From assembly GCA_017476665.1 (NCBI GenBank), contig JAFUZJ010000050.1:1-64000 (forward strand): a stretch of 64,000 bases of DNA. Reading direction: 5' to 3'. The position numbers and the translations under genes were made by a program. This DNA comes from Lachnospiraceae bacterium. GTDB taxonomy: Bacteria; Bacillota; Clostridia; Lachnospirales; Lachnospiraceae. Numbering within the stretch: position 1 is the first letter of the stretch; the number at the start of each line of letters is the position of its first letter. The notes under the pieces were generated by a model. It searched no databases and was not told the DNA's origin. It worked only from the letters and a program-made list of their open reading frames with translations. Shown in pieces: positions 714 through 14,858 of the stretch.

Positions 714-767
714 AAATACATGGCAAAAATATAAAGCATATGAAAGCACGAATAGTTGGAGGTTACT

Positions 768-1466
768 GTGTATAAAATGGAACCTGTAAGTGATTTTGAT
801 GAAATAAGTAAAGAGATACTAAAAAATTACAGAGATGGAGAGGTAATTACGATAGGAATATTGTTAGCAGATGGTCAACAAGATGAAGCCAAGCAATATA
901 TCATTAATTATATGGACAGATTCGATAGAAAATCTGGTAAATATATAGATTTTTATATCCCGGGATATTATGAATTAAACACTGAAAATGTTCAAATACA
1001 TAGAAAATATCATCCTAATTCATATTTTAAAAGAGATGAAGTCAAAAAAGAACTGGCATTTTATATCAGAAGAAATCAGACGGCATATTATTTTGATAAA
1101 TTTTTATTCGATGATTTTATTGAGGAAATGAATTCACGCATGGGAATTGAATATACATATAACCCCATGTTGATACTGGTAGAAGTTAATATGAATAAGA
1201 ATAGAGGAAATATTGAGTTCCAAGATAAAATGGTAATAGAGTTGGATGAAGACAGTAATAGAGGGTTAAGACGTTCGGGTCAATTGTTTGATGAAATATT
1301 TTCTATTGCAAAGCAACAAGTAAAGTTGGATCGGTTCGAAAAGGATGTTAGGATGTACTATATTAAAGGAAAGGCAGTAGAAAATTTTATTAGAATCCTC
1401 AGCGGGAGTTGGCTAGAAGCTGTTACGGATATAGTTAGCGATGTTCATCGTTTTAGAATTAAGTGA
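768..1466 (+). CDS. Hypothetical protein, first gene of a pair with an MBL-fold hydrolase
   Basis: I do not recognise this protein of about 232 residues. It is rich in Lys, Glu, Asp and aromatic residues, has no signal peptide or membrane segment, and shows no catalytic motif I can name. The GTG at 768 is preferred because TGGAGG at 757-762 is well placed for it; ATG at 777 is an alternative. The frame also runs upstream to a TTG at 756, but that codon lies inside the ribosome binding site. The gene is AT-rich like the rest of the island and lies 151 bases upstream of an MBL-fold hydrolase on the same strand, which suggests a two-gene module. Function is unknown. Confidence 0.6.
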   Translation: MYKMEPVSDFDEISKEILKNYRDGEVITIGILLADGQQDEAKQYIINYMDRFDRKSGKYIDFYIPGYYELNTENVQIHRKYHPNSYFKRDEVKKELAFYIRRNQTAYYFDKFLFDDFIEEMNSRMGIEYTYNPMLILVEVNMNKNRGNIEFQDKMVIELDEDSNRGLRRSGQLFDEIFSIAKQQVKLDRFEKDVRMYYIKGKAVENFIRILSGSWLEAVTDIVSDVHRFRIK

Positions 1467-3302: not shown

Positions 3303-3609
3303 TGCGACATTGGAAAGAAATGAGAATCGGTCGAAATGTGGCTACAGAACAGATCCGGGAAGAATGGATTGTATATGGGTCTCTTTGGCAATCCAGCTGA
3401 GGCTGAGTGGGAGTGATAGCAAATAAAAACGGATGTAAACTAGATGGATAAAAGGCTGAGATAGATATAGGTTAGTTTATTGCATCTTGAATTATAGAAA
3501 TAATTATAATATATAAAGATATTAAACAAGGAATTTGACTGCGCTTGTTCAATTAAAAAATTTTTCTTGATTGCATTTAGGCAAAGTTAATTTAGGGGGA
3601 GAAGAGAGA

Positions 3610-5778
3610 ATGAGTACAAAAGAAATTTTATTTGAAAGTATGAAACAATTTTGTAAAAATACTTCCGGGAAGTGCAGAAATGCCTTTTTTGAAAACTGGT
3701 TTACTAAAAATGGAAAAACATATAATTTTATTTTTAAACAAAATCTATATGTAACTAATATACAGTATAGAGAGTTGATTGATCTTATTCAGTTAAATAC
3801 GACAAGAGAAAGTAAAAGAGTACAAATAAATTTTATGACGACAAAAGATTTTTTTGATTTTATGTCAAACATTATAGAGTCATTTATTGATATGAATTGC
3901 TTAAGAAAAATAAGAGAGAACACATGTGAAATTGAATTAGTATCAAACGATTTAGAACGTTTATGCAAAAATTATTTAAATATTTTTGAGAATATCGTTG
4001 TGGTTGATTCTTTTTATACTTCGTGTATTGTATCAATACCGAATGGAATGGTTATGGATATTCAGCAGATATGTTTTCAATCTGGATATATACATTCTTG
4101 TGGTGAAAATATTTATACGAGAAACATGAAAAAGGCAAAATATGATAGTTTTGTCTCACGATTGGAAGAATATATTGATAATAGTGATAATATTCTAAAT
4201 TTTATTATGTATACACATGAAGATTATCCAATTAAAAACAAATTATATGTAAATGATTTCCAAAAACATGGTCTTGATGAAATAAAATTTTATCTTGAAA
4301 AGTTTTATATGCAAGATATTTCTTTATTACAAGTTGTTGAAAAACTCAAAAGTAATGGGAATTTGAAAAACAAAATAAGAATTGTGAGTAGGTCGGAGGC
4401 TAAAAGAACACAAGCAAATGAATGTATATGGATGATTATTGATAGATCCATAAGTGAAGATTTAAAATATCCAGGAGAAAGAAGATACTATATATGTTAC
4501 AAGCAAATGTATATAAATGAGAATCCCTTTCATATTTTTGATGAAAACAAACCTGGGTGGATTGATAGTGTAACAATTCCGCATACATTAATGGGAGCAA
4601 TGCTTAACATAGGTTTAGCGGGATGTTTGATTAATGAGCGGGATAAATATATAGTTGTGGATCCGTTTGTTGGAACAGGTACAACTTTACTTGAAACATT
4701 AAAGTATACAAAAATTGATTTTTGGGGCGGAGATAAATGTGCAATAACACAAATAGTATCTGAATTGAATTTGATTTTCTTTGCAATGAAAAAAAGTTCA
4801 TTAAATAAAATACAGAATATTGTATTGGAAATCATTGACGTAGGAGATTCTGCCAAATGTCAGAAAATTATATCAGATTTACAAATTAAAAATTATAGTA
4901 GTGAAAAGTGGCATGATTTGGCAGTTTGTATTAGTGGTTACTTGACAAATTGTATAAATGATTTTGTTTTAAAAGGATTTGAGTTTGAAACTAAATTTTG
5001 TTCACTTACAGAAGATCTTTATAATGAAATTAAGAATTCAAAAAAAAATTCTGGTTTATCAAATGAAGAATGTTGTTTAATCTCAAAAGTTTGTCTTTTG
5101 ATTGTATGGAAAACATTTAAACGGAAAGAATTTATTTACAGAAAAAATTCAAATCAAGAGAATTCTTTTATAAAAGAAGTGGCTGAGGAATTTAAAGGAT
5201 TTTTATATCGTTTAATATCATATATTCATATACGTGAAAGAATTAAAGACAATGCCAATGATGAAGAAAGAATTATAGTATACAATGGAAAATATACAAG
5301 GGCATGTTCAATTAATAGTAACTATATTAAAAATAATATAACTGTTGAGTCATCTAAAATAAAACAAAACATAGATATAATAGATTTTCTTAAAGGCTTG
5401 CAGAATGAGCAAAAAAAGGTTGATTTGATTATTACTGATCCGCCTTACGGATTTAACACAATTGAAGATAAGAATTCTTTTGCAGAATTATATATTAATT
5501 TTATTGAAGAAATGGTTAAAACTATAAATAATGGAGGACAAATAATTATGTGTTTGCCTGCATGGTCATATTCAGGTAAAACTGTAAATTTTTTTGCTCA
5601 GAAAGAAGTCGTGAGTCGACAATTTATGATTGCTGCACAAAGAAACAATATGTATATTGCAGAGAAAAAAGAAGTATTAACAGAGCCGACAAAATTGTTT
5701 GAATTTCCTTTTTATTGGGATTCAGAGAAAGCGCTGAGAAGAGATATTGTCAAATTTCAATTTTTTAAAAGAAGTTGA
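3610..5778 (+). CDS. Large Trm11/UPF0020-like SAM-dependent methyltransferase, island gene
   Basis: A protein of 722 residues starting at ATG 3610, which has a good ribosome binding site (AGGGGGA, nine bases upstream). A Rossmann methyltransferase is recognisable from motif I, VDPFVGTGTT at about residues 350-359, and motif IV, TDPPYG at about residues 609-614, in the order seen in Trm11, RlmL and UPF0020 RNA methyltransferases and in some DNA methylases. DPPY is typical of amino-group methylation. About 250 residues of helical, Lys-rich sequence separate the two motifs, far more than usual. The N-terminal 340 residues are unfamiliar and may be a target-binding domain. The gene lies 418 bases upstream of an RlmN-like/PIN fusion on the same strand. 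RNA as substrate is inference; a DNA methylase is possible. Confidence 0.7.
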   Translation: MSTKEILFESMKQFCKNTSGKCRNAFFENWFTKNGKTYNFIFKQNLYVTNIQYRELIDLIQLNTTRESKRVQINFMTTKDFFDFMSNIIESFIDMNCLRKIRENTCEIELVSNDLERLCKNYLNIFENIVVVDSFYTSCIVSIPNGMVMDIQQICFQSGYIHSCGENIYTRNMKKAKYDSFVSRLEEYIDNSDNILNFIMYTHEDYPIKNKLYVNDFQKHGLDEIKFYLEKFYMQDISLLQVVEKLKSNGNLKNKIRIVSRSEAKRTQANECIWMIIDRSISEDLKYPGERRYYICYKQMYINENPFHIFDENKPGWIDSVTIPHTLMGAMLNIGLAGCLINERDKYIVVDPFVGTGTTLLETLKYTKIDFWGGDKCAITQIVSELNLIFFAMKKSSLNKIQNIVLEIIDVGDSAKCQKIISDLQIKNYSSEKWHDLAVCISGYLTNCINDFVLKGFEFETKFCSLTEDLYNEIKNSKKNSGLSNEECCLISKVCLLIVWKTFKRKEFIYRKNSNQENSFIKEVAEEFKGFLYRLISYIHIRERIKDNANDEERIIVYNGKYTRACSINSNYIKNNITVESSKIKQNIDIIDFLKGLQNEQKKVDLIITDPPYGFNTIEDKNSFAELYINFIEEMVKTINNGGQIIMCLPAWSYSGKTVNFFAQKEVVSRQFMIAAQRNNMYIAEKKEVLTEPTKLFEFPFYWDSEKALRRDIVKFQFFKRS

Positions 5779-6196
5779 AAATAAATTGACAATATTATAG
5801 GAGCTTCCAGTGTGGCAATCATGAGAAAGAGTCCGTAACACTTAAACAAAGAATGAGCCAGTAGTCGGCAGGAATATTTTCCATAAGGCAAGACCCTGCA
5901 TAGGAGCTAAGCTGAAACCCTGGTTATGGACAGTCGGGACGAAGAAAGTTAGAACCCTAAAGAAATGCAGGTGATCCTGGTAGACGTGGGAGGTTTGCTC
6001 TGTAGATGGAGGAGCATACACAAGGCCATGCAAAGCGAAATACACAGACGTTTTACTTCGTGTACCCCAAACCAACTATTTTTGTACCAGATACAGAGAA
6101 ATGTCCATCTACATGGCTCATTTATCTGAGATATGAACTGAAAATTTCCATGAAAAATAAGGAAAAACACTTGACTAAATAGGGAGGAAATCACCT
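5779..6196. other. Unexplained non-coding segment, more GC-rich than its flanks
   Basis: Between two very AT-rich genes lies a stretch (roughly 5830-6110) with clearly higher GC and no convincing coding frame on either strand; short frames on the minus strand lack start signals and recognisable content. It has runs that look capable of pairing and begins close to a GTGTG at 5810-5814. It could be a structured RNA or a decayed mobile-element piece such as the 5' part of a group II intron, but I see no domain V motif and cannot name it. The last bases (6181-6187) supply the strong ribosome binding site of the next gene. Confidence 0.4.
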
Positions 6197-8002
6197 ATGA
6201 TAGATATATGGGAAAATACGTTTAATATTAAAAAAATATATAATAAAGAAATGTATTATAAATCCAGAAGCTGGAATCGACAGAGGGTGCAAAAATTTTT
6301 GCTTGCATATGATAATGAAAGAATTCTAGAGTGTATGTTGATAATTCATTACAACAATGAACAGAGTCGAGATTTAACAATAGAATTAAGTAATATGTAT
6401 AATTGTATTGTAGGATGCCAGTTTTGTGCGTCAGGAAATTTAAAACAATCTGCAGTCGAATTATCTGAATATGATTATATTGCTCAAATAAATACGTGTT
6501 TAAAGTATAGTGATGTTGATCCTAATAATTATGAAAATTTTTATATAAGTTTTTACGGGATAGGAGAGCCTTCAGTTGTCTATAGAAGAATAGGAAATGT
6601 CATTCCTGTCATTAAAAGAAAGTTTTTGCATGCTCAGTTTAATATAGCTACTTTTGGATTTAATGAGAAATGTTTTGATTATTGGAGAGAATTTACACCT
6701 GATATAAGAACTTTACAAATCCCTTTTTATAGTAGCAATCGTAATACATTAAAAAAAATTGTAAGAAATTTGCCTGATAATTATGATTTTGTCAAGGTGT
6801 TAAAACAAGCAATAGGGTATAAAAAATATCATGAAAAATGCAGAGTAAAAATAAATTATATTGTTATACAAGATTGCAATGATAATGTGGATGAAGTGAA
6901 AAAACTTATGGAAATTTTATATCCTTATTTATCTATGATTTGTATTAGAATTTCTTATTTAAATTATACCAGAATTGGGAAAAGAAATGGTTATATTTCG
7001 GCATCAACTTATAAAATTAAAGAAATATATGATTTATTAAGTAGTAGGAGATTCGAATGTTATATTTTTGGGACAGAAAAGAATATAGAAGTGGGGTGTG
7101 GACAGTTGCTACAAAATCATATTTCTTCAGAGATGAAGAAAACAACTATATATTTAGATCATAACATATATATTGAATGTTTGGATAATCCCGATTTTAA
7201 ATCTAACATCATGGAAACGAGAGAAAAGGGTGAGCGTCGGATCGTTTATAGTCCAGCACATATTGAAGAAGTGTACAAAGTGGCTAAAGATAGTAATTCT
7301 AAGTATCAAAACAAAATGTCAGATTTGCTAAAAATAATTGATGAGATTACAAAATCGGAGGAATTCTTGCCAGCATATGGAGGAATTTATATAACTACAG
7401 AACCTACAAGAAAATGCTATAAAAGAGTGATAAATGTGGATACAACGGAAAGAGTGAGAACTGATAGTCTTGCTAAGTTTGAGGTAGATTCGTCGAATTA
7501 TAAAAAGATGATTTCAGAAGATAAACATAATACTTTTATTACAAATTTGTCAGCAGAAGAGATATGGCAGTTCGAGATATTAACGAGGCTTTTAGATGAT
7601 TTAAACAAAAATATCAAAAAAATTATTTATGATTACAATAATAGTCTTATAAATTCTTTACTATGTCAGGCAGGAGTAGATAAAAGGTTGTCAGATGACT
7701 TTTGTTTTAAAAGGGGCAATTATTCTGATAGATTAAAAAATAATTATAATGAACTTGAGTATACGATTGAAATACTTATGCGATTATTGAATTTTTGCGG
7801 ATATAATGCAGAGAAGACAGAAAGAACAGCAATATCGTCAACACATGATGTAACACATTGCATTTATGCTACTGGGGCTGATCGCATTCTTACTATGGAC
7901 GAAAGATTTGCAAAGAAATGTGGAGCTGTATATAAATTTTTGGGGGTAGATACCCAAGTTATTTTTTGCAAAACGAATGAACAAGTACTGGAAAATATGT
8001 AG
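6197..8002 (+). CDS. RlmN/Cfr-like radical-SAM protein fused to a PIN-like nuclease domain
   Basis: A protein of 601 residues with a very strong ribosome binding site (AGGGAGGAAA). Residues 60-310 resemble RlmN/Cfr RNA methyl-synthases: a radical-SAM cluster motif C70-IVG-C74-QF-C77, the SAM-binding GIGEPS at 121-126, and C301 in GCGQL, which corresponds to the methyl-carrying cysteine of RlmN (in ACGQL). The second conserved cysteine, expected seven residues before the cluster at position 63, is Glu. Residues 316-601 look like a PIN-type ribonuclease: YLDHNIYI with D321, an acidic pair at 357-358, THDVTHCIYA with D551, then D562 and LTMDERF with D568. I know of no standard family with this fusion. 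It follows the Trm11-like gene on the same strand. An RNA-targeting defense or toxin role is inferred. Confidence 0.75.
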   Translation: MIDIWENTFNIKKIYNKEMYYKSRSWNRQRVQKFLLAYDNERILECMLIIHYNNEQSRDLTIELSNMYNCIVGCQFCASGNLKQSAVELSEYDYIAQINTCLKYSDVDPNNYENFYISFYGIGEPSVVYRRIGNVIPVIKRKFLHAQFNIATFGFNEKCFDYWREFTPDIRTLQIPFYSSNRNTLKKIVRNLPDNYDFVKVLKQAIGYKKYHEKCRVKINYIVIQDCNDNVDEVKKLMEILYPYLSMICIRISYLNYTRIGKRNGYISASTYKIKEIYDLLSSRRFECYIFGTEKNIEVGCGQLLQNHISSEMKKTTIYLDHNIYIECLDNPDFKSNIMETREKGERRIVYSPAHIEEVYKVAKDSNSKYQNKMSDLLKIIDEITKSEEFLPAYGGIYITTEPTRKCYKRVINVDTTERVRTDSLAKFEVDSSNYKKMISEDKHNTFITNLSAEEIWQFEILTRLLDDLNKNIKKIIYDYNNSLINSLLCQAGVDKRLSDDFCFKRGNYSDRLKNNYNELEYTIEILMRLLNFCGYNAEKTERTAISSTHDVTHCIYATGADRILTMDERFAKKCGAVYKFLGVDTQVIFCKTNEQVLENM

Positions 8003-8186
8003 ATAGAACGACGGTATATTCATAGTTAATTTACTGACTCACAACGGAGCGTCTCAATAGATGATATTAAACATGTAAGAATATGCAGACACACTTAAGC
8101 CATTACATGATTTATCAAAATATGCAATTGATTTAGTGATATGACATGCAGAGATTTCGTTGACTAGAAATGTTTGTGGAGGGGTT

Positions 8187-9374
8187 ATGGAAAAATTAAA
8201 TGTAATACATTATATGAATGAACTAAGAAACATTTTGTCATATGCTGCAAACATTGGTTTCTTTTTTGGTGCAGGTACATCTTGTGCATTTGGATTGCCA
8301 TCTATTGAACAGTTAACTAATGAAGTGAAAGATTCTCTTTTGGCAAGTCAGAAAGATTTGTTTGTGACAGTCGAGAATTTATTAAGAGATTTATCGAAAA
8401 AAACCACTATTACAATCGAGGATGTACTAAATCACCTAAGAGAAGTGAGAAGTTTGACTCAGGATAGACCAGACTATGAATTTAAAGGGCTGACAGGTGC
8501 ACAGGCTAAGGAATTAGATCACTCTATATGCAATGCTGTGTTTGAAATTATAAAAGCCAGAACAGAGAGTGCAAACGTTTCTGATTTGCGGCGTTTTTTT
8601 GCATGGTATGATGCGGCTAACAGAGGATTTGTTAAAGAGATTTATACAACGAATTATGATATGCTGTTAGAAATGGCAATGGAGGCTAATCGTACTCCGT
8701 ATTTTGACGGATTTACAGGATCTTATGAGCCTTTTTTTTCACCGGAAACGATAGAAGTATTTCCAGGCGAAAAGGATGTGACTAGCAAATGGATAAGATT
8801 GTGGAAAATCCACGGCTCGCTTAATTGGATGAAGAAGCTTGGCGATGAATTATCTGAGGAACACATTATTCGAGTTGGTAAAATTGATAAACCACAAAAT
8901 GAGCTTATGATTTATCCTTCAAGAGCGAAGTACAGTCTTTCCAGAAAAGAGCCGTATATTGCATATTTTGACCGATTAAAGAAGTATTTAAGTTATGGGG
9001 AGTGTGTATTTATTGTGTCAGGATATTCATTTGGAGACGAGCATATTAATGAAGTTATTTTTAATGCGTTGAGAAATAATAGTCGGCTATATGTCGTGGT
9101 GTTGTGTTATGGAGATGAGCAGGTAGAGGCAATGGAGAAATATGCTAGTGCATATATCAATCTGTGTGTTGCGGGTCCGACGAAAGTTATTGTAAATAGT
9201 ATGAAGAAAGAATGGATATATAATGAAGCGGAAGAGCAAGATATTGGCGCTGGGATGTACTGGGACAAAACGAGAAGTAAATTTTTATTGGGTGACTTCA
9301 AGAGCTTGATTGACTTTTTCATTGAAAATTCTGGACGAAAGAATGTCATTGAGGAGATGACTAATGCAAAGTGA
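8187..9374 (+). CDS. SIR2-family NADase of a SIR2-HerA defense system
   Basis: A protein of 395 residues starting at ATG 8187 behind GTGGAGGGG. SIR2 signatures are in order: GAGTS at 28-32, TTNYD at 154-158, the KIHGSLNW motif with His209, and SGYSFGDEHINE at about 278-289. Proteins of this type in two-gene SIR2-HerA systems hydrolyse NAD+ when phage DNA is sensed, causing abortive infection. The last bases overlap the start of the HerA gene (ATG at 9364, stop ending at 9374), so the two are translationally coupled. Catalytic residues appear intact. The role is known for the family and not shown for this protein. Confidence 0.88.
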   Translation: MEKLNVIHYMNELRNILSYAANIGFFFGAGTSCAFGLPSIEQLTNEVKDSLLASQKDLFVTVENLLRDLSKKTTITIEDVLNHLREVRSLTQDRPDYEFKGLTGAQAKELDHSICNAVFEIIKARTESANVSDLRRFFAWYDAANRGFVKEIYTTNYDMLLEMAMEANRTPYFDGFTGSYEPFFSPETIEVFPGEKDVTSKWIRLWKIHGSLNWMKKLGDELSEEHIIRVGKIDKPQNELMIYPSRAKYSLSRKEPYIAYFDRLKKYLSYGECVFIVSGYSFGDEHINEVIFNALRNNSRLYVVVLCYGDEQVEAMEKYASAYINLCVAGPTKVIVNSMKKEWIYNEAEEQDIGAGMYWDKTRSKFLLGDFKSLIDFFIENSGRKNVIEEMTNAK

Positions 9375-11136
9375 TGTTACATACTTAGGAAAAGTAATTC
9401 GAGTAGATTCTAATTCAATAGAGGTTGAGATCAGCAATGACATTCCATCGTCAAGTCCTATTATTAATGGAAAAGTTTATAAGTTAGGACAGATAGGAAC
9501 TTTTGTGAAAATTATCGCAGGAAATATCACAACTTTTGGACTGGTGGATTCTGTCAGTAATGCAGCGTCAAATATGTCATTGAATGCACAGGAAATGAAT
9601 CTTGGAAGTAGATTTTTAACGGTTAGTCTTGTTGGTGAAAAGATTGGGAGCAGAAGTTTTCAAAAGGGAATTGGACTCTATCCTACGATCAACGATGAAG
9701 TTCACCTTGTGACTGTCGAGGACCTTCAGGATATTTACGGAGGAACTACAGATATTGAGGGATGTCTTGCGATAGGAAAACATTCATCATCTGACAATTT
9801 GGACGTGTATTTAAATATACACAAGCTGGTTCTTAGGCATTCAGCAATATTAGGTTCTACGGGAAGCGGTAAATCTAACAGTGTTGTTGCTATTATAAAA
9901 AAACTGACAAGCCAAATGCTTAATTCTCGTATGGTTCTAATTGATCCGCATGGTGAATATGGATCAGCTTTTCCAGATGCAAAGGTATTTCGCATTGGTG
10001 ATCCCCAACGCCCGCTATATGTACCGTTTTGGTTGATGAACTTCGATGAACTTATGTATTTTTTGGTAGGTGCAAAGCCTGCGGATGATCAACGACCTGA
10101 ATATCGAGCATTTAGAGAGCTTATTGTTAGTGAAAAAAAGAAAAATTATCAATTGTTGGCAGGTGATGTAAATCGGGATTATATTACCGCAGACTCACCA
10201 ATTCCATTTAATATTCGCCAGCTATGGTATGATTTAAACAGGCGAGTGAACGCTACATACAAAAATCCGTCAACCCAGACAAGAGATACGGAATGTCTTG
10301 TTGATGAGGGAAATGCAGATAATTTGATACCTGCATCATTTAAACCGTATTCATTGAGCAATCAGGCCCCATACAAGTCGAAAGATACTATGTTTTACGC
10401 ATATGAAAAAAAGCTGATTTCCAGGTTGAAAGATAGTCGGTATGACTTTATGTTCTATCCCGGAGAATATCGTGATAGAGAATCGGGAAAAGATTTGCAT
10501 AATCTTCTGCAAGAATGGATTAGTGGCGAAGAAAGATTGACTATTCTTGACCTTAGCAATGTGCCTTTTGAAGTTATGGACATTACCGTGGGGCTGATTA
10601 CACGGTTTATCTATGATAGTATGTTCTGGGGACGATTTGAGGCAAATACCGGCAGAAACAGACCACTGTTGATTGCATATGAAGAGGCTCATACATATCT
10701 GGGGAAGGGCAATACATTTTATGCCAAGGATGCTGTTGAAAGAATATTTAAGGAAGGTCGGAAATTTGGCTTGGGAGCTATGGTAATTTCTCAGAGACCG
10801 TCAGAGCTTTCTGAAACAATACTTGCACAGGTTGGGACTTTTATTGCTTTACGATTAACTAATTCTTCAGACCAATCTATTGTGAAGTCAATGGCACCTG
10901 ATAATATGAGCAGTTTAATAAATTTGTTGCCATCATTGAGGATTGGAGAGGCTGTGATTGTAGGTGAGGCTATCAATATTCCTTCCAGGGTGAAGTTGCC
11001 CTTGCAGACGCCAAGACCGGATAGTTCTGATCCTGACGTGGTATCAGCCTGGAATAAAACATATCAAGTTACGGATGACAGCTATAAATCTGTCATTATG
11101 AATATACGTGAACAAAGAATTGCAGGAAGGACATAG
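9364..11136 (+). CDS. HerA-type DNA translocase/ATPase of the SIR2-HerA system
   Basis: A protein of 590 residues of the HerA/FtsK superfamily. The N-terminal 100 residues fit the HAS beta-barrel. Walker A is GSTGSGKS at 164-171, Walker B is LLIAYEEAH at 435-443, and ISQRPSE at 475-481 matches the conserved sensor/arginine segment. The family forms hexameric rings. Paired with SIR2 proteins they assemble large complexes that act in anti-phage immunity. The start overlaps the SIR2 gene by 11 bases and the stop is two bases before the KTSC gene, giving a tight three-gene unit. Confidence 0.88.
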   Translation: MQSDVTYLGKVIRVDSNSIEVEISNDIPSSSPIINGKVYKLGQIGTFVKIIAGNITTFGLVDSVSNAASNMSLNAQEMNLGSRFLTVSLVGEKIGSRSFQKGIGLYPTINDEVHLVTVEDLQDIYGGTTDIEGCLAIGKHSSSDNLDVYLNIHKLVLRHSAILGSTGSGKSNSVVAIIKKLTSQMLNSRMVLIDPHGEYGSAFPDAKVFRIGDPQRPLYVPFWLMNFDELMYFLVGAKPADDQRPEYRAFRELIVSEKKKNYQLLAGDVNRDYITADSPIPFNIRQLWYDLNRRVNATYKNPSTQTRDTECLVDEGNADNLIPASFKPYSLSNQAPYKSKDTMFYAYEKKLISRLKDSRYDFMFYPGEYRDRESGKDLHNLLQEWISGEERLTILDLSNVPFEVMDITVGLITRFIYDSMFWGRFEANTGRNRPLLIAYEEAHTYLGKGNTFYAKDAVERIFKEGRKFGLGAMVISQRPSELSETILAQVGTFIALRLTNSSDQSIVKSMAPDNMSSLINLLPSLRIGEAVIVGEAINIPSRVKLPLQTPRPDSSDPDVVSAWNKTYQVTDDSYKSVIMNIREQRIAGRT

Positions 11137-11138
11137 AT

Positions 11139-11357
11139 ATGGAAAGACAATATGTTGATTCAAGTATGATTACCAGTATAGGATATGATTTTTCGACATG
11201 TACTTTGGAAATTGAATTTAAGGGAGGTGCAGTATGGGATTATCCGGGAGTTCCGGAATATCTCTGGTATGAATTTGAGAACGCTGATTCCAAGGGAAAG
11301 TTTTTTCATCAAAATATAAATAAGCAGTATACTCCGCAGGGATATAGGGTTCAATAG
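11139..11357 (+). CDS. KTSC-domain small protein
   Basis: A 72-residue protein that is essentially one KTSC domain: SMITSIGYDFSTCTLEIEF, then VWDYPGVPEYLWYEF, and the defining run NADSKGKFFHQNI. The domain takes its name from lysyl-tRNA synthetase C-terminal-like sequences and has no settled function; binding to nucleic acid or to a partner is usually suggested. It starts two bases after the HerA stop, so it is co-transcribed with SIR2-HerA and may be a small accessory or regulatory subunit. That link is inferred from position. Confidence 0.8.
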   Translation: MERQYVDSSMITSIGYDFSTCTLEIEFKGGAVWDYPGVPEYLWYEFENADSKGKFFHQNINKQYTPQGYRVQ

Positions 11358-11478
11358 TTTTACGCAGATAGACAGAAAGCTGCTTTTAGGATCAGAATAG
11401 AAATACTATTTTAAAGCGTAATATAAATTTATTTAATGACGTTTCATTATAAAGTAGGCGATTTAAAGGTGGATAGCG

Positions 11479-13038
11479 ATGTATACTTTTCAAGTCATAA
11501 GATCCGAAAATAACATAAAACGAAATGGTTTTTATTTAGTACCAGATGATTGGGATGATTGGTTCGAATTTGAGATATCATTTCGTTTATGGATAATTGA
11601 CACTGAAAAGCAATGTATAGGCCGAGTAAAAATCGCGGAAATTAATCAAAGCGAAAGAAAGCCTTGTTTGCCTTCTTCTTTCAAAAATCTAGGGGATAAT
11701 TATGTTTCTGTTGGTTTTAATGAAGAATATTATGAAACATTAAAGCAAACAAAGTACAGAGAAAAAATTTTGAAGGCACTTAATGATATTGCCTATAATA
11801 TTAATATTTATGAGCAAGTTAAAGAATATCGTGTAACGAGGATTGCATTAATGCGGGAGTATTCTGATTCTATGTTACGAGGTCAGATTCATCGAATGGC
11901 ATTAGGTGGAGCTAGACTTACAGATTATAGATTTACTTATATTTTTCCCTCAAAGAATCCATTAACTGGTAAAAACGTTGAAATGCAGTTTGAAGTAGAG
12001 AGAGAAAATAAACCAGCAAGTAATATTCATGTTTTGATAGGGAAAAATGGTATCGGAAAAACTACAATTATTAAAAATATGATATATGCACTGGAAAATT
12101 GTAAAACAAAAGAGGAAGTAGGAAGATTAGAAAGTGATTGTATCACTGATTTTGTAAACATAGTATTTGTATCGTTTAGTGCATTTGATGAGGCAATATT
12201 TGAAGAGAACTTTGAAACAAAGTTTCCCATACAATATAAATTTGTAGGACTGTTAAAAAATAAAAGTATTAAGAGTAGAGATACACTTACAGAAGAATTT
12301 GTAGAAACAAGTTTTAACTTTTACACCAATTTATCTAAAATGAGATTGTGGAAAGAGACGATTCAGATATTGGAATCAGATAATACATTTCAGGAGTTAG
12401 AGATTACTGAATGGATTAGTGAGTCACATAAATCAAAATGGAAAAAGGAGATAGAAAACCGAGTAAAGGAAGATCCAAATGCGGATATAGATTCACGGAG
12501 AAGAATGTTAGGGGAAAGTCATCGGGAAAAGATTTACCCATTGTTTTCAATGCTGAGTTCTGGTCATAAGATTATTTTATTAACACTTGCTAATTTAATT
12601 AATTTAGTAGAGGAAAAAACCATTGTTTTTTTAGACGAACCGGAGGAACATCTACACCCTCCTCTTGTTGCTGCATTTATAAAAGCATTGTCTAATTTAT
12701 TGATATATCGGAATGGGGTAGGAATTATTGCAACACATTCTCCTGTTATAGTGCAAGAGGTACCTAAAAAATGTGTATGGATTTTAAAGCGATCAGGTAA
12801 TTATCTGATCCCGAGGAGACCGGAAATAGAGACTTATGGAGAAAACCTGGGTGAGTTAACTACGGAAGTATTTGGATATGAAGTAGATAGTTCAGGATTT
12901 CACAAAGAACTTCAGGAGGCTGTAAAAATAAGTAATACATATGAAGAAGCACGGGAAATTTTTAATAATCAGTTGGGCAAGGAAGCCAAATCTATATTAA
13001 GGGCGTATATGTACGATAAAGAGGAACACATGAAATAA
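11479..13038 (+). CDS. ptuA: Septu-type ATPase (PtuA-like)
   Basis: A protein of 519 residues of the SMC/ABC-like AAA class found in Septu and related nuclease systems. Walker A is GKNGIGKTT at 188-196, an ABC-signature-like LSSGHK is at 359-364, Walker B is TIVFLDEPEEHLHPP at about 381-395, and the His-switch IIATHSP is at 416-422. The N-terminal 170 residues before Walker A are unusual and may bind the target. An AAAGGTGG ribosome binding site precedes ATG 11479. The stop overlaps the next gene's ATG by one base. PtuA ATPases partner HNH nucleases in anti-phage defense; the exact subtype cannot be fixed from sequence alone. A promoter is presumably in 11358-11478, which is AT-rich and otherwise empty. 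Confidence 0.78.
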   Translation: MYTFQVIRSENNIKRNGFYLVPDDWDDWFEFEISFRLWIIDTEKQCIGRVKIAEINQSERKPCLPSSFKNLGDNYVSVGFNEEYYETLKQTKYREKILKALNDIAYNINIYEQVKEYRVTRIALMREYSDSMLRGQIHRMALGGARLTDYRFTYIFPSKNPLTGKNVEMQFEVERENKPASNIHVLIGKNGIGKTTIIKNMIYALENCKTKEEVGRLESDCITDFVNIVFVSFSAFDEAIFEENFETKFPIQYKFVGLLKNKSIKSRDTLTEEFVETSFNFYTNLSKMRLWKETIQILESDNTFQELEITEWISESHKSKWKKEIENRVKEDPNADIDSRRRMLGESHREKIYPLFSMLSSGHKIILLTLANLINLVEEKTIVFLDEPEEHLHPPLVAAFIKALSNLLIYRNGVGIIATHSPVIVQEVPKKCVWILKRSGNYLIPRRPEIETYGENLGELTTEVFGYEVDSSGFHKELQEAVKISNTYEEAREIFNNQLGKEAKSILRAYMYDKEEHMK

Positions 13039-13886
13039 TGATAAAACTAATAAAACCAGAGTTTAATCAATATGAAATTATTACTGACTGTACTTCACAA
13101 ATGAGAGATGACGATCGAAAACAACTTATACTAAACTGCAGAGATGAAATAGTTAGCGCAAGTGAGGAATATGACAGAAAGGCTAGTGCAGGGCAATTAT
13201 CACTCATTAGTGTTCACGATAGGTTACTTGGCGGTGCGTCAAAAGATGATATGACAAAACTTTATGAACAGAGATTTGCTTCTAAAAGAGCATATGGGAG
13301 AGTATATTATGATAAGATTAAATTGCTATCTCCCAATTTTAGATGCCCTTATTGTGCGCAAAGAGGGGTTGGTACATTAGATCATTATTTACCAAAATCA
13401 AAATATCCGGTTTATGCGGTAACTCCCTATAATCTGGTGCCGGCATGTATGGAATGCAATAAAGTAAAGATGGATGAAAATTTTGGTCGTAGAGAGGAGG
13501 AGGTAATACATCCATATTACGACGATTTTTCCGGTGAAAAATGGGTTGCAGCAAATATGATAGAGGAAGAACCGATTGCATTTGAGTTTTTTGTAAGATG
13601 TCCAGAGTGTTGGGATCATACTAAGAAAAGAAGGGCGGAAAACCATTTTTATAGATTTCAATTAGGTACACTGTATAAGCCGTATGCATCTGAAGAATTT
13701 GGAGCATGTTACAGCAGAATAAAAAGATTATATTTAAAAGGCGGAAAAGATTTAGCTGTTAAAGATTTAAATGAGCAGATAATAGATAGAGATACCATTC
13801 GGTTAAATACATGGCAGGCTGCGATGTATCAAGCTATTATAGATAGTCAGTGGTTTTGGGAGACTTATTTGCCACAAAATACCTAG
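13038..13886 (+). CDS. ptuB: HNH endonuclease (PtuB-like) of the Septu pair
   Basis: A protein of 282 residues with an HNH nuclease in its first half: zinc-binding CPYC at 103-106, the catalytic DHYLPKSKYP with H116, and CMECNKVK at 137-144 completing the zinc site and the Asn of the motif. This is the arrangement of PtuB-type effectors, which cut nucleic acid when licensed by the PtuA ATPase. The start overlaps the ATPase stop by one base (TAATG), implying coupled translation and fixed stoichiometry. The C-terminal 130 residues, including a further Cys pair (RCPEC), are family-specific. Confidence 0.82.
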   Translation: MIKLIKPEFNQYEIITDCTSQMRDDDRKQLILNCRDEIVSASEEYDRKASAGQLSLISVHDRLLGGASKDDMTKLYEQRFASKRAYGRVYYDKIKLLSPNFRCPYCAQRGVGTLDHYLPKSKYPVYAVTPYNLVPACMECNKVKMDENFGRREEEVIHPYYDDFSGEKWVAANMIEEEPIAFEFFVRCPECWDHTKKRRAENHFYRFQLGTLYKPYASEEFGACYSRIKRLYLKGGKDLAVKDLNEQIIDRDTIRLNTWQAAMYQAIIDSQWFWETYLPQNT

Positions 13887-13904: not shown

Positions 13905-14858
13905 ATGGACGAAAGAGAAATGATTGAGAGTATTTCAAAATTTGAATGTTCTGATGGAAGAAACTTAAATTTATCAGATCAATTTATTAAAAATAAGTTG
14001 TGTAATGCGTTATCAAATAAAAATATTTTATGTTTAGCACGCGGGGAGGGGCGTAGCGGAGTATTAAATGATATAGTATTTCATCCAGAAATATTGTTTG
14101 ATTGGGGTGAAAAATCAGTACATGCTTTATTAAATAATGAAGATCAGCATTTAAGGAGATTTTGTGATCCAGGTATTATAGATAAAGATATAATGGAGTA
14201 TTATATTACTAAATATGCAGAACAACTAAAGGGATACTATTATCGGTATAGATATTTCAAGCGTAGTGAACAAGATGTAAATAGATTTCTCGATAAATTG
14301 AAAGAACAAATTAATGAAGAGTATAATGAAGAGGAACTTTTATGTGTAAAAGAATGGTTAATCTATGCACTTCATACAATGGGAGAAAAGGAATTTAAAA
14401 AGATTACGCCATGTATATCATGCAGTTATGGAACAAATCGGTTTACAATTGCTCATAAATTTGGACTCGGACATAATAATCCTTATTTTGTAATAATGGA
14501 TTGTTGGGTTGATAAAAGAGAAGAGGGGCGTGCATATAAACGGACAGAATACGTAAATGAAGTTCTAAAAAAATATGGATTGGATTGGTTTAATAATAAA
14601 AATAATGAAATAATGCTTAAGTATGGAATTTTTCCGCAGCATTTAGTGGGCTACTATTTACTAGATAGAGATTCTACATATAAATATGTCATTAATAGAC
14701 ATTACGTAGATGAGTGGGAAAGAAATTCGGATTTCGAAATAGGAGATCCAATATATTTTGAACAGATAATCGATTTTAAAAATTTAGGCCCCTACAACAC
14801 GGTATATGAGTATAATGGAAGATGTTTTTCGATTGCAGCAAAAAGGTCTAGTTTATAA
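13905..14858 (+). CDS. Hypothetical protein following the Septu pair
   Basis: An unrecognised protein of 317 residues, starting 18 bases after the HNH gene with a modest AAGGGG ribosome binding site. It has no signal peptide or membrane segment. Visible features are a possible loop LARGEGRSG near residues 46-54, a Tyr/Arg-rich stretch (YYYRYRYFKR) and a Cys-Ile-Ser-Cys segment near residue 170. None identifies a family for me. It shares the base composition, strand and spacing of the Septu genes and is probably a third component, a protective partner, or an independent passenger. Confidence 0.55.
   Translation: MDEREMIESISKFECSDGRNLNLSDQFIKNKLCNALSNKNILCLARGEGRSGVLNDIVFHPEILFDWGEKSVHALLNNEDQHLRRFCDPGIIDKDIMEYYITKYAEQLKGYYYRYRYFKRSEQDVNRFLDKLKEQINEEYNEEELLCVKEWLIYALHTMGEKEFKKITPCISCSYGTNRFTIAHKFGLGHNNPYFVIMDCWVDKREEGRAYKRTEYVNEVLKKYGLDWFNNKNNEIMLKYGIFPQHLVGYYLLDRDSTYKYVINRHYVDEWERNSDFEIGDPIYFEQIIDFKNLGPYNTVYEYNGRCFSIAAKRSSL

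What the first reader, a model, noticed from the sequence alone, without database searches (positions are those of the whole stretch)
6197..8002. Fusion of an RlmN/Cfr-like radical-SAM methyl-synthase with a PIN-like nuclease
One uninterrupted gene joins an RNA-methylating radical-SAM fold (C70/C74/C77 cluster, GIGEPS, GCGQL) to a C-terminal domain with the acidic pattern of PIN ribonucleases (D321, E357/E358, D551, D562/D568). RlmN and Cfr modify A2503 of 23S rRNA and, for RlmN, some tRNAs. A built-in nuclease suggests recognition, marking or cutting of an RNA target, as in a toxin or an anti-phage effector. I know of no described system with this architecture.
Basis: partly seen in the sequence, partly recalled or inferred. 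Interest (0 to 1): 0.85.

Follow-up and report, generated by a model that had tools for sequence, protein, structure and literature searches.

The report
Radical-SAM enzyme fused to split nuclease
One gene in a gut bacterium's phage-defence island joins an RNA-modifying-type radical enzyme to an RNA-cutting-type nuclease that in relatives is a gene of its own, so it may be a new way of choosing which RNA to cut during an infection; this has not been tested.

Summary
In detail: 6197-8002 is one open frame of 601 codons with its own Shine-Dalgarno sequence. Residues 29-316 match the RlmN radical-SAM model (E 1e-18, 67 bits; cut-off 290). The cluster cysteines, GEP and the methyl-carrying cysteine (C301) are kept. 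The resolving cysteine, present in 33 of 33 RlmN-type proteins aligned, is Glu63, and RlmN's N-terminal domain is missing. Residues 315-601 are a PIN-type domain in two pieces around a ~130-residue insert: both pieces match ordinary PIN proteins above every shuffled control, and the four acids are acidic in 21 of 22 aligned members. This family has no Pfam or NCBIfam model. Its relatives are mostly lone genes without a recurring antitoxin, on mobile elements or beside defence genes. No second rSAM-PIN fusion was found: 0 of 37 loci of the PIN family or weak candidates hold a relative of the rSAM half. Best reading: a single-gene, self-inhibited defence ribonuclease whose RlmN-like half binds, and perhaps covalently captures, the RNA to be cut.

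The parts
6197..8002 (+). rSAM-PIN fusion gene, 601 aa
6181..6187 (+). Shine-Dalgarno AGGGAGG, 9 nt before the ATG; it is the end of the IS110-family remnant
6281..7126 (+). RlmN-like radical-SAM domain, residues about 29-310, without the RlmN N-terminal domain
   Evidence: (TIGR00048 profile 79-354)
6404..6427 (+). CxxxCxxC (C70, C74, C77), [4Fe-4S] cluster motif
6383..6385 (+). Glu63, in the position of the resolving cysteine of RlmN (E. coli C118)
   Evidence: role of C118 from passages
6557..6574 (+). GIGEPS motif (residues 121-126)
7097..7099 (+). Cys301 in GCGQL, in the position of the methyl-carrying cysteine (E. coli C355)
7139..7363 (+). N-terminal piece of the PIN domain (residues 315-389) with Asp321 and Glu358
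7364..7753 (+). ~130-residue insert inside the PIN domain (residues 390-519), with family motif E402-x4-C407-x2-R410-V411
7754..7999 (+). C-terminal piece of the PIN domain (residues 520-601) with H550-Asp551-x2-H554 and Asp568
5831..6187 (+). right end of an IS110-family element without its transposase, lying directly before the gene; not part of the system

Best explanation
A single-gene defence ribonuclease with a built-in RNA-recognition half. The C-terminal PIN domain, split by an insert that probably holds it inactive, is the cutting part; in relatives it stands alone as a one-gene unit. Here an RlmN-like radical-SAM domain has been joined in front of it. That domain keeps the residues for binding the cluster and SAM and for methylating its own cysteine, but has lost the resolving cysteine and the N-terminal domain of RlmN. 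It most likely binds an adenosine-bearing stem-loop of tRNA, rRNA or phage RNA, and so brings the nuclease to that RNA, or releases it, when infection changes the RNA or its modification; the cut stops translation. Shown by sequence: the fusion, the two domain kinships, the kept and lost residues, the setting. Inferred: nuclease activity, RNA target, self-inhibition, trigger, defence.
For: Fusion and intact start. rSAM kinship and kept cluster, GEP and C301. PIN kinship from two independent profile pieces, 0 of 50 shuffles reaching either score; all four acids acidic in 21 of 22 rows, the 22nd being cut off by its contig end. No recurring neighbour in 25 loci listed (ORFs of 60 aa or more), and the 15 small same-strand ORFs (30-130 aa) within 40 nt of 26 genes are unrelated to one another. 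Relatives sit in conjugation-type regions (L018, L098), phage or viral records (L005, L012, L047), after DISARM-like genes (L020) and before type I restriction genes (L003) (gene names in unannotated loci are recalled). Five of the 24 loci carry another N-terminal extension of about 70-250 residues (L028, L032, L033, L034, L038), so the front end seems exchangeable. The window island is AT-rich (genes at GC 0.27-0.39 against 0.507 for 20-64 kb) and holds SIR2, HerA and a PDC-M01A/B pair. Precedent: DS-3, a one-protein defence system with a PIN split between both ends, no antitoxin, catalytic residues needed (PMC13092281, passages seen).
Against: No structure model could be made. hhalign's own probabilities for PIN are modest (27% for the whole domain, 60% and 39% for the two end pieces), no PIN chain of the PDB is found by the family profiles, and only 2 of 22 members touch a Pfam PIN model, at E 0.16-0.17. 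The fusion was seen in one genome only, so conservation cannot show that the joined form is under selection. 32 of 59 near-invariant RlmN positions are changed, including the SLH stretch (residues 176-178), so RNA binding by the rSAM half is uncertain. Being in a defence island is not proof of defence.
Confidence: 0.45

Rival explanations
1. Accidental joining. The PIN half works by itself as in its relatives, and the rSAM half is a passenger that is losing function, or the join is an assembly or recombination accident in this one strain.
For: No second fusion: 0 of 37 loci hold an rSAM-half relative, and genome searches with the whole protein found only the own gene and PIN-only matches (1 of 146, 3 of 392, 1 of 99 genomes positive). 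32 of 59 near-invariant RlmN positions lost. The halves differ somewhat in GC (0.265 against 0.309) and codon use (distance 0.241, more than either half to the neighbouring methyltransferase).
Against: The frame runs through with a linker of about 10 residues and no stop. Cluster cysteines, GEP and C301 are all kept, which random decay would not favour. Low GC and GC3 in both halves fit the same island.
Confidence: 0.22
2. Modify-and-spare system: the rSAM half still methylates an adenosine, with Glu63 as the base that the resolving cysteine supplies in RlmN, and the PIN half cuts RNA lacking the mark; the neighbouring UPF0020-type methyltransferase (3571-5778) may take part.
For: C301 and the cluster residues are kept. 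The resolving cysteine is thought to act as a general base (review PMC9692996, passages), which a Glu could do. The neighbour's best NCBIfam matches include Trm14-type RNA methyltransferases and its best Pfam match is UPF0020; it is close to the rSAM half in GC (0.268 and 0.265) and codon use (distance 0.187; 0.195 to the PIN half).
Against: Mutating that cysteine to Ala in RlmN stalls the reaction as a protein-RNA crosslink. No relative of the methyltransferase is near the PIN gene in any of 37 loci, and an IS remnant now lies between the two genes. The neighbour also matches DNA methyltransferase models weakly.
Confidence: 0.15
3. Toxin of a toxin-antitoxin pair of VapC type, or an RNA-quality-control enzyme of the host without a defence role.
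For: PIN-type domain; VapC toxins are the best characterised bacterial PIN proteins (stated in PMC13092281, passage).
Against: The only small same-strand ORF beside the window gene (6006-6182, 58 aa) lies inside the IS remnant, and no recurring small partner is seen in relatives (ORFs under 30 aa not looked at). Patchy spread: apart from the own genome 3, 0 and 4 positive genomes in samples of 391, 398 and 397, and carriage on mobile elements, speak against housekeeping.
Confidence: 0.1

Closest known systems
DS-3 of the DefensePredictor study (PMC13092281; passages seen, sequence and figures not seen)
   Same: One protein, PIN ribonuclease domain split between the N and C terminus, no antitoxin; the standalone relatives found here have this layout.
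   Different: No radical-SAM domain is mentioned for DS-3; kinship of sequence could not be tested.
RlmN (23S rRNA A2503 / tRNA A37 C2-methyl-synthase)
   Same: Radical-SAM core, CxxxCxxC, GEP, methyl-carrying Cys in CGQL; best profile match (E 1e-18).
   Different: 67 bits against a cut-off of 290; no N-terminal domain; Glu in place of the resolving Cys; fused PIN. The genome has a normal RlmN elsewhere (409 bits).
Cfr (23S rRNA A2503 C8-methyl-synthase)
   Same: Same radical-SAM group (TIGR04432, E 2e-9).
   Different: 37 bits against a cut-off of 550; the same losses as for RlmN. Nothing here suggests drug resistance from it.
VapC-type PIN toxins
   Same: Order and kind of acidic residues; profile match of both ends of the domain.
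   Different: ~130-residue insert with its own E-x4-C-x2-RV motif, extra HD-x2-H and SPAHxEE signatures, no antitoxin found, mostly 240-320 aa instead of the 131-157 aa of most PIN proteins compared.

Membership tests
RlmN (NCBIfam TIGR00048) | Score over the curated cut-off (290 bits) | tested here: not met
   67.4 bits; 68.8
RlmN (NCBIfam TIGR00048) | CxxxCxxC cluster motif, GEP, methyl-carrying Cys in CGQL | tested here: met
   C70/C74/C77, G123-E124-P125, C301-G-Q-L kept
RlmN (NCBIfam TIGR00048) | Resolving cysteine (E. coli C118) | tested here: not met
   Glu63; Cys in 33 of 33 aligned RlmN-type rows and in 28 of 28 RlmN ORFs extracted from 29 loci (L050 gave no ORF)
RlmN (NCBIfam TIGR00048) | N-terminal accessory domain | tested here: not met
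   Match begins at profile position 79 of 355; 28 residues precede it
RlmN (NCBIfam TIGR00048) | Methylation of A2503 / A37 | not testable with these tools
   needs an assay
Cfr (NCBIfam TIGR04432) | Score over the curated cut-off (550 bits) | tested here: not met
   37.0 bits
PIN domain superfamily | Four conserved acids in the order D ... E ... D ... D | tested here: met
   D321, E358, D551, D568; all four acidic in 21 of 22 rows (Asp for Glu358 in 3 rows), L047 being truncated
PIN domain superfamily | Profile kinship to known PIN proteins | tested here: met
   hhalign against 10 PIN proteins: N piece 30.0, C piece 26.5; best of 50 column shuffles 7.4 and 7.1; reversed 2.6 and 6.6; middle piece 1.05. 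hhalign probabilities only 60% and 39%
PIN domain superfamily | Pfam/NCBIfam PIN model over cut-off | tested here: not met
   PF01850 E 0.17 at residues 4-64 of the half; among 22 members one weak hit each to PIN, PIN_3 and TIGR00305
PIN domain superfamily | Alpha/beta PIN fold by model or structure | not testable with these tools
   structure prediction switched off
DS-3-type one-protein split-PIN defence | PIN domain split between both ends of a single protein | tested here: met
   middle piece has no PIN match (score 1.05, 29 of 50 shuffles as good) while both ends do; met by the PIN half and the lone relatives, the window protein having the rSAM half in front
DS-3-type one-protein split-PIN defence | No antitoxin neighbour | tested here: met
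   no recurring partner in 25 loci and no related small ORFs beside 26 genes
DS-3-type one-protein split-PIN defence | Sequence kinship to DS-3 | tested here: inconclusive
   sequence not available; DNA searches of E. coli genomes with two relatives empty
DS-3-type one-protein split-PIN defence | Phage protection dependent on catalytic acids | not testable with these tools
   needs a plaque assay
Type II toxin-antitoxin (VapBC) | Adjacent small antitoxin gene | tested here: not met
   only a 58-aa ORF inside the IS remnant beside the window gene; no recurring one in relatives

The most novel reading that the evidence does not exclude
A radical RNA trap. Because the methyl-carrying cysteine is kept and the resolving cysteine is gone, the radical-SAM half may stop by design at the stage where the RlmN C118A mutant is trapped: a methylene bridge between protein and adenosine. 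The enzyme would then weld itself to its target RNA (a tRNA anticodon loop or a phage RNA) and the attached PIN nuclease would cut that RNA in place, a one-shot, SAM-dependent defence effector.
Probability: 0.1. Interest if true: 0.92.

Novelty: new variant of a known kind. Interest (0 to 1): 0.6.

Why it matters
The split-PIN family is an unnamed, mobile nuclease family without a visible antitoxin, for which one experimental precedent of like layout exists; how such lone nucleases are kept quiet and how they choose their RNA is open. A member that carries an RNA-modification-type domain as its front end offers a concrete guess at the target (adenosine-bearing stem-loops) and a chemistry (SAM, iron-sulfur cluster) that can be switched off by single loss-of-function changes. 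If the rSAM half does act on RNA, it would be the first radical-SAM-steered ribonuclease that I know of (recall). Five paper searches showed none, but only listings were seen and three were capped: 10 of 10 papers, 4 of 4, 15 of 40, 15 of 840, 10 of 76. Passages of five of those papers did not mention it.

Tried and rejected
Group II intron or retron-like RNA upstream of the gene: 5780-6196 looked like one by eye, but Rfam gave nothing at gathering thresholds in the window, only chance-level matches (E 0.27 and up), and the RNA fold of 5795-6110 is no better than shuffles (z 0.71). Related copies follow an IS110-family transposase gene: annotated in L124, by eye in L104 and L105. Several other copies begin at a contig end, and L108 and L109 have other genes upstream within the flank held, so the full element was not traced. 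N-terminus cut off by that IS: considered and set aside, because the right ends of this element commonly stop in a GGAGG-like box 3-12 nt before an ATG (13 of 19 copies; control fraction 0.245, binomial 6.5e-5), so the start codon is probably native.

rSAM and PIN as separate neighbours in relatives: looked for in 37 loci, 605,866 bases, tblastn E up to 1: PIN half in 34 (not L015, L016, L099, which are weak candidates), rSAM half in 0, MTase in 0 (several loci are near-duplicates: L033/L100, L034/L101, L004/L036/L037). Close relatives by peptide pattern from the whole protein or the rSAM half: none in genome contigs or viral contigs. Methyltransferase relatives in plasmids or viral contigs: none. 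G324 holds only a broken PIN end (61% identical over 80 residues) and G999 a frame-broken PIN; L021 is split by a frame break. PADLOC on the 22 PIN rows gave three families in one member each, best PDC-M03B at E 7e-4, taken as weak. A pattern search for another copy of the IS end in the window was empty and not informative.

Rows left out: the 22-row PIN alignment A5 uses 16 of the 24 loci (left out: L021, broken frame; L028, L032, L033, L034, L038, other N-terminal parts; L030 and L037, near-copies) plus L047, L012, L003, L005, L002 and the window. The PIN reference set uses 10 of 14 loci (left out: L080 partial, L082 and L083 long types, L084 no ORF). The RlmN set of 33 uses 27 of 29 new loci (L050 gave no ORF, L059 duplicates L058) plus L044, L007-L010 and L043. 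Of 20 loci given to the IS-end comparison, 18 reach the end and were counted with the window. The genome samples overlap, so they must not be added up.

Full report
WHAT IS THERE. The reading frame 6197-8002 is open for 601 codons from an ATG that has AGGGAGG nine bases before it. It is the only copy in its genome, on a 149.5 kb contig that begins at window base 1. The genome is listed in the same family as G1059; G1059's contig length (3,507,896) equals that of the Hungatella hathewayi record, so I infer Lachnospiraceae.

THE FRONT HALF. NCBIfam RlmN matches residues 29-316 at E 1e-18, and two Cfr models at about 2-3e-9, all far below their curated cut-offs. Pfam, PADLOC and PHROGs give nothing of use for the whole protein. 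I aligned it with 33 RlmN-type proteins: 27 from genomes of the phylum, the genome's own RlmN, and five from phage and plasmid records. In that alignment 59 columns hold one residue in at least 31 of the 33 rows. The fusion keeps 27, among them the three cluster cysteines, G-E-P and C301-G-Q-L, and loses 32. The loss that matters most is at residue 63: Cys in 33 of 33, Glu here. In RlmN this cysteine (C118) resolves the covalent enzyme-RNA intermediate, and C118A traps it; the cysteine is thought to act as a general base (passages of PMC5130265 and PMC9692996). The N-terminal domain of RlmN is missing, as it is in an RlmN-like protein of a 462-kb phage record (L008), which however keeps both cysteines.

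THE BACK HALF. Residues 315-601 belong to a family without a Pfam or NCBIfam model. Across 22 members only single weak hits appear: PIN E 0.17, PIN_3 0.16, TIGR00305 0.037; PADLOC gives one member at 7e-4 to PDC-M03B. PDB profile searches find no PIN chain. Relatives came from plasmids and phages, viral contigs (one locus each) and genomes (24 loci). Among those covering the whole domain, identity to the window runs from 23 to 51% (best L017, Synergistaceae). I cut the family profile in three and compared each piece with 10 ordinary PIN proteins. The first 75 residues score 30.0 and the last 82 score 26.5, against 7.4 and 7.1 as the best of 50 column shuffles; the middle 130 score 1.05 (29 of 50 shuffles as good). 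The whole profile scores 24.4 against at most 7.8 in 30 shuffles. hhalign's own probabilities are modest (27, 60 and 39%), because the insert and short pieces count against it. I read this as a PIN domain opened by an insert. D321, E358, D551 and D568 are acidic in 21 of 22 rows; the remaining row is cut by its contig end. H355, H550, H554 and, in the insert, E402, C407, R410 and V411 are nearly as constant.

CONTEXT OF THE FAMILY. In 25 loci listed there is no constant neighbour on either side, and the 15 small ORFs found directly beside 26 genes are unrelated to one another. By names that I recall from the sequences where the record is not annotated, the gene lies inside conjugation modules (L018, L098), beside a serine recombinase (L019, L021), in phage or viral records (L005, L012, L047), after DISARM-like genes (L020), before type I restriction genes (L003, annotated), and between pieces of a hisH-like gene (L024). 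Other loci show ordinary chromosomal or metal-resistance neighbours (L017, L002, L004). Five of the 24 loci carry another N-terminal extension. None of 37 loci (605,866 bases) holds a relative of the rSAM half or of the methyltransferase next door. Searches of genomes with the whole protein found only the window's own gene and PIN-only pieces. The fusion is therefore, so far, seen once.

CONTEXT IN THE WINDOW. The genes of the first 15 kb are AT-rich (GC 0.27-0.39; 20-64 kb 0.507). They are an MBL-fold gene (1618-2814), a UPF0020-type methyltransferase (3571-5778), the fusion, SIR2 and HerA (8160-11136), and a PDC-M01A/B pair (11479-13886) whose first gene also matches PtuA and whose second has an HNH domain. 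The stretch between methyltransferase and fusion is the right end of an IS110-family element that has lost its transposase. Its end forms the Shine-Dalgarno sequence of the fusion gene, as it seems to do at other insertion sites (13 of 19 with an ATG 3-12 nt on; 8 of 19 with at least 60 open codons).

HOW IT LIKELY WORKS. [quoted passage not shown] figures and supplement not seen). I take the window protein to be such a nuclease with a new front end. RlmN acts on an adenosine of tRNA and of 23S rRNA, so the likeliest job of the rSAM half is to choose the RNA. Three sub-readings stay open: binding only, methylation with Glu63 as base, or a deliberate covalent trap. The kept C301 and cluster argue against mere decay; the many other changes argue against an unchanged RlmN reaction.

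WHAT IS NOT SHOWN. No fold was modelled. Cutting, target, trigger and protection are inferred. The single occurrence leaves room for a recent accident. The most novel reading, the radical RNA trap, is not excluded and is given 0.1.

Noticed in passing
window 5831-6187; L104-L113, L115, L117-L123: Right end of an IS110-family (long right end, IS1111-like) element. In 13 of 19 copies an ATG follows 3-12 nt after its terminal GGAGG-like box (control fraction 0.245; binomial 6.5e-5), and in 8 of 19 that ATG opens at least 60 codons within the 400 bases read. The element may be guided to ribosome-binding sites.
   Followed up: partly
window 3571-5778: 735-aa UPF0020/Trm14-like methyltransferase with no relative found in plasmids or viral contigs; base composition and codon use are close to the rSAM half.
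   Followed up: partly
window 756-1466 and 13905-14858: Two island proteins (236 and 317 aa) without significant family matches.
   Followed up: no
L006:4812-5657, L041:2845-3633, L042:2842-3717: Short phage RlmN-like radical-SAM proteins without N-terminal domain, with Gly in the place of the resolving Cys and no CGQ motif in the ORFs read. In L041 the gene is the second after an SPFH/band-7 gene, and in a Stenotrophomonas phage the match lies under a gene annotated as prohibitin family.
   Followed up: partly
L024 about 9500-11600: PIN gene set between two stretches that both begin like the same hisH-like gene, as if inserted by a site-specific element (name recalled).
   Followed up: no
L028, L032, L033, L034, L038: PIN family members with different N-terminal extensions (about 70 to 250 residues, not named), suggesting exchangeable front modules.
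   Followed up: partly
L014 and L125 (G324:C30, about 31-35 kb): Broken PIN end (61% identical to the window over 80 residues) beside a transposase-like gene and a small membrane protein, apparently a decayed locus.
   Followed up: no
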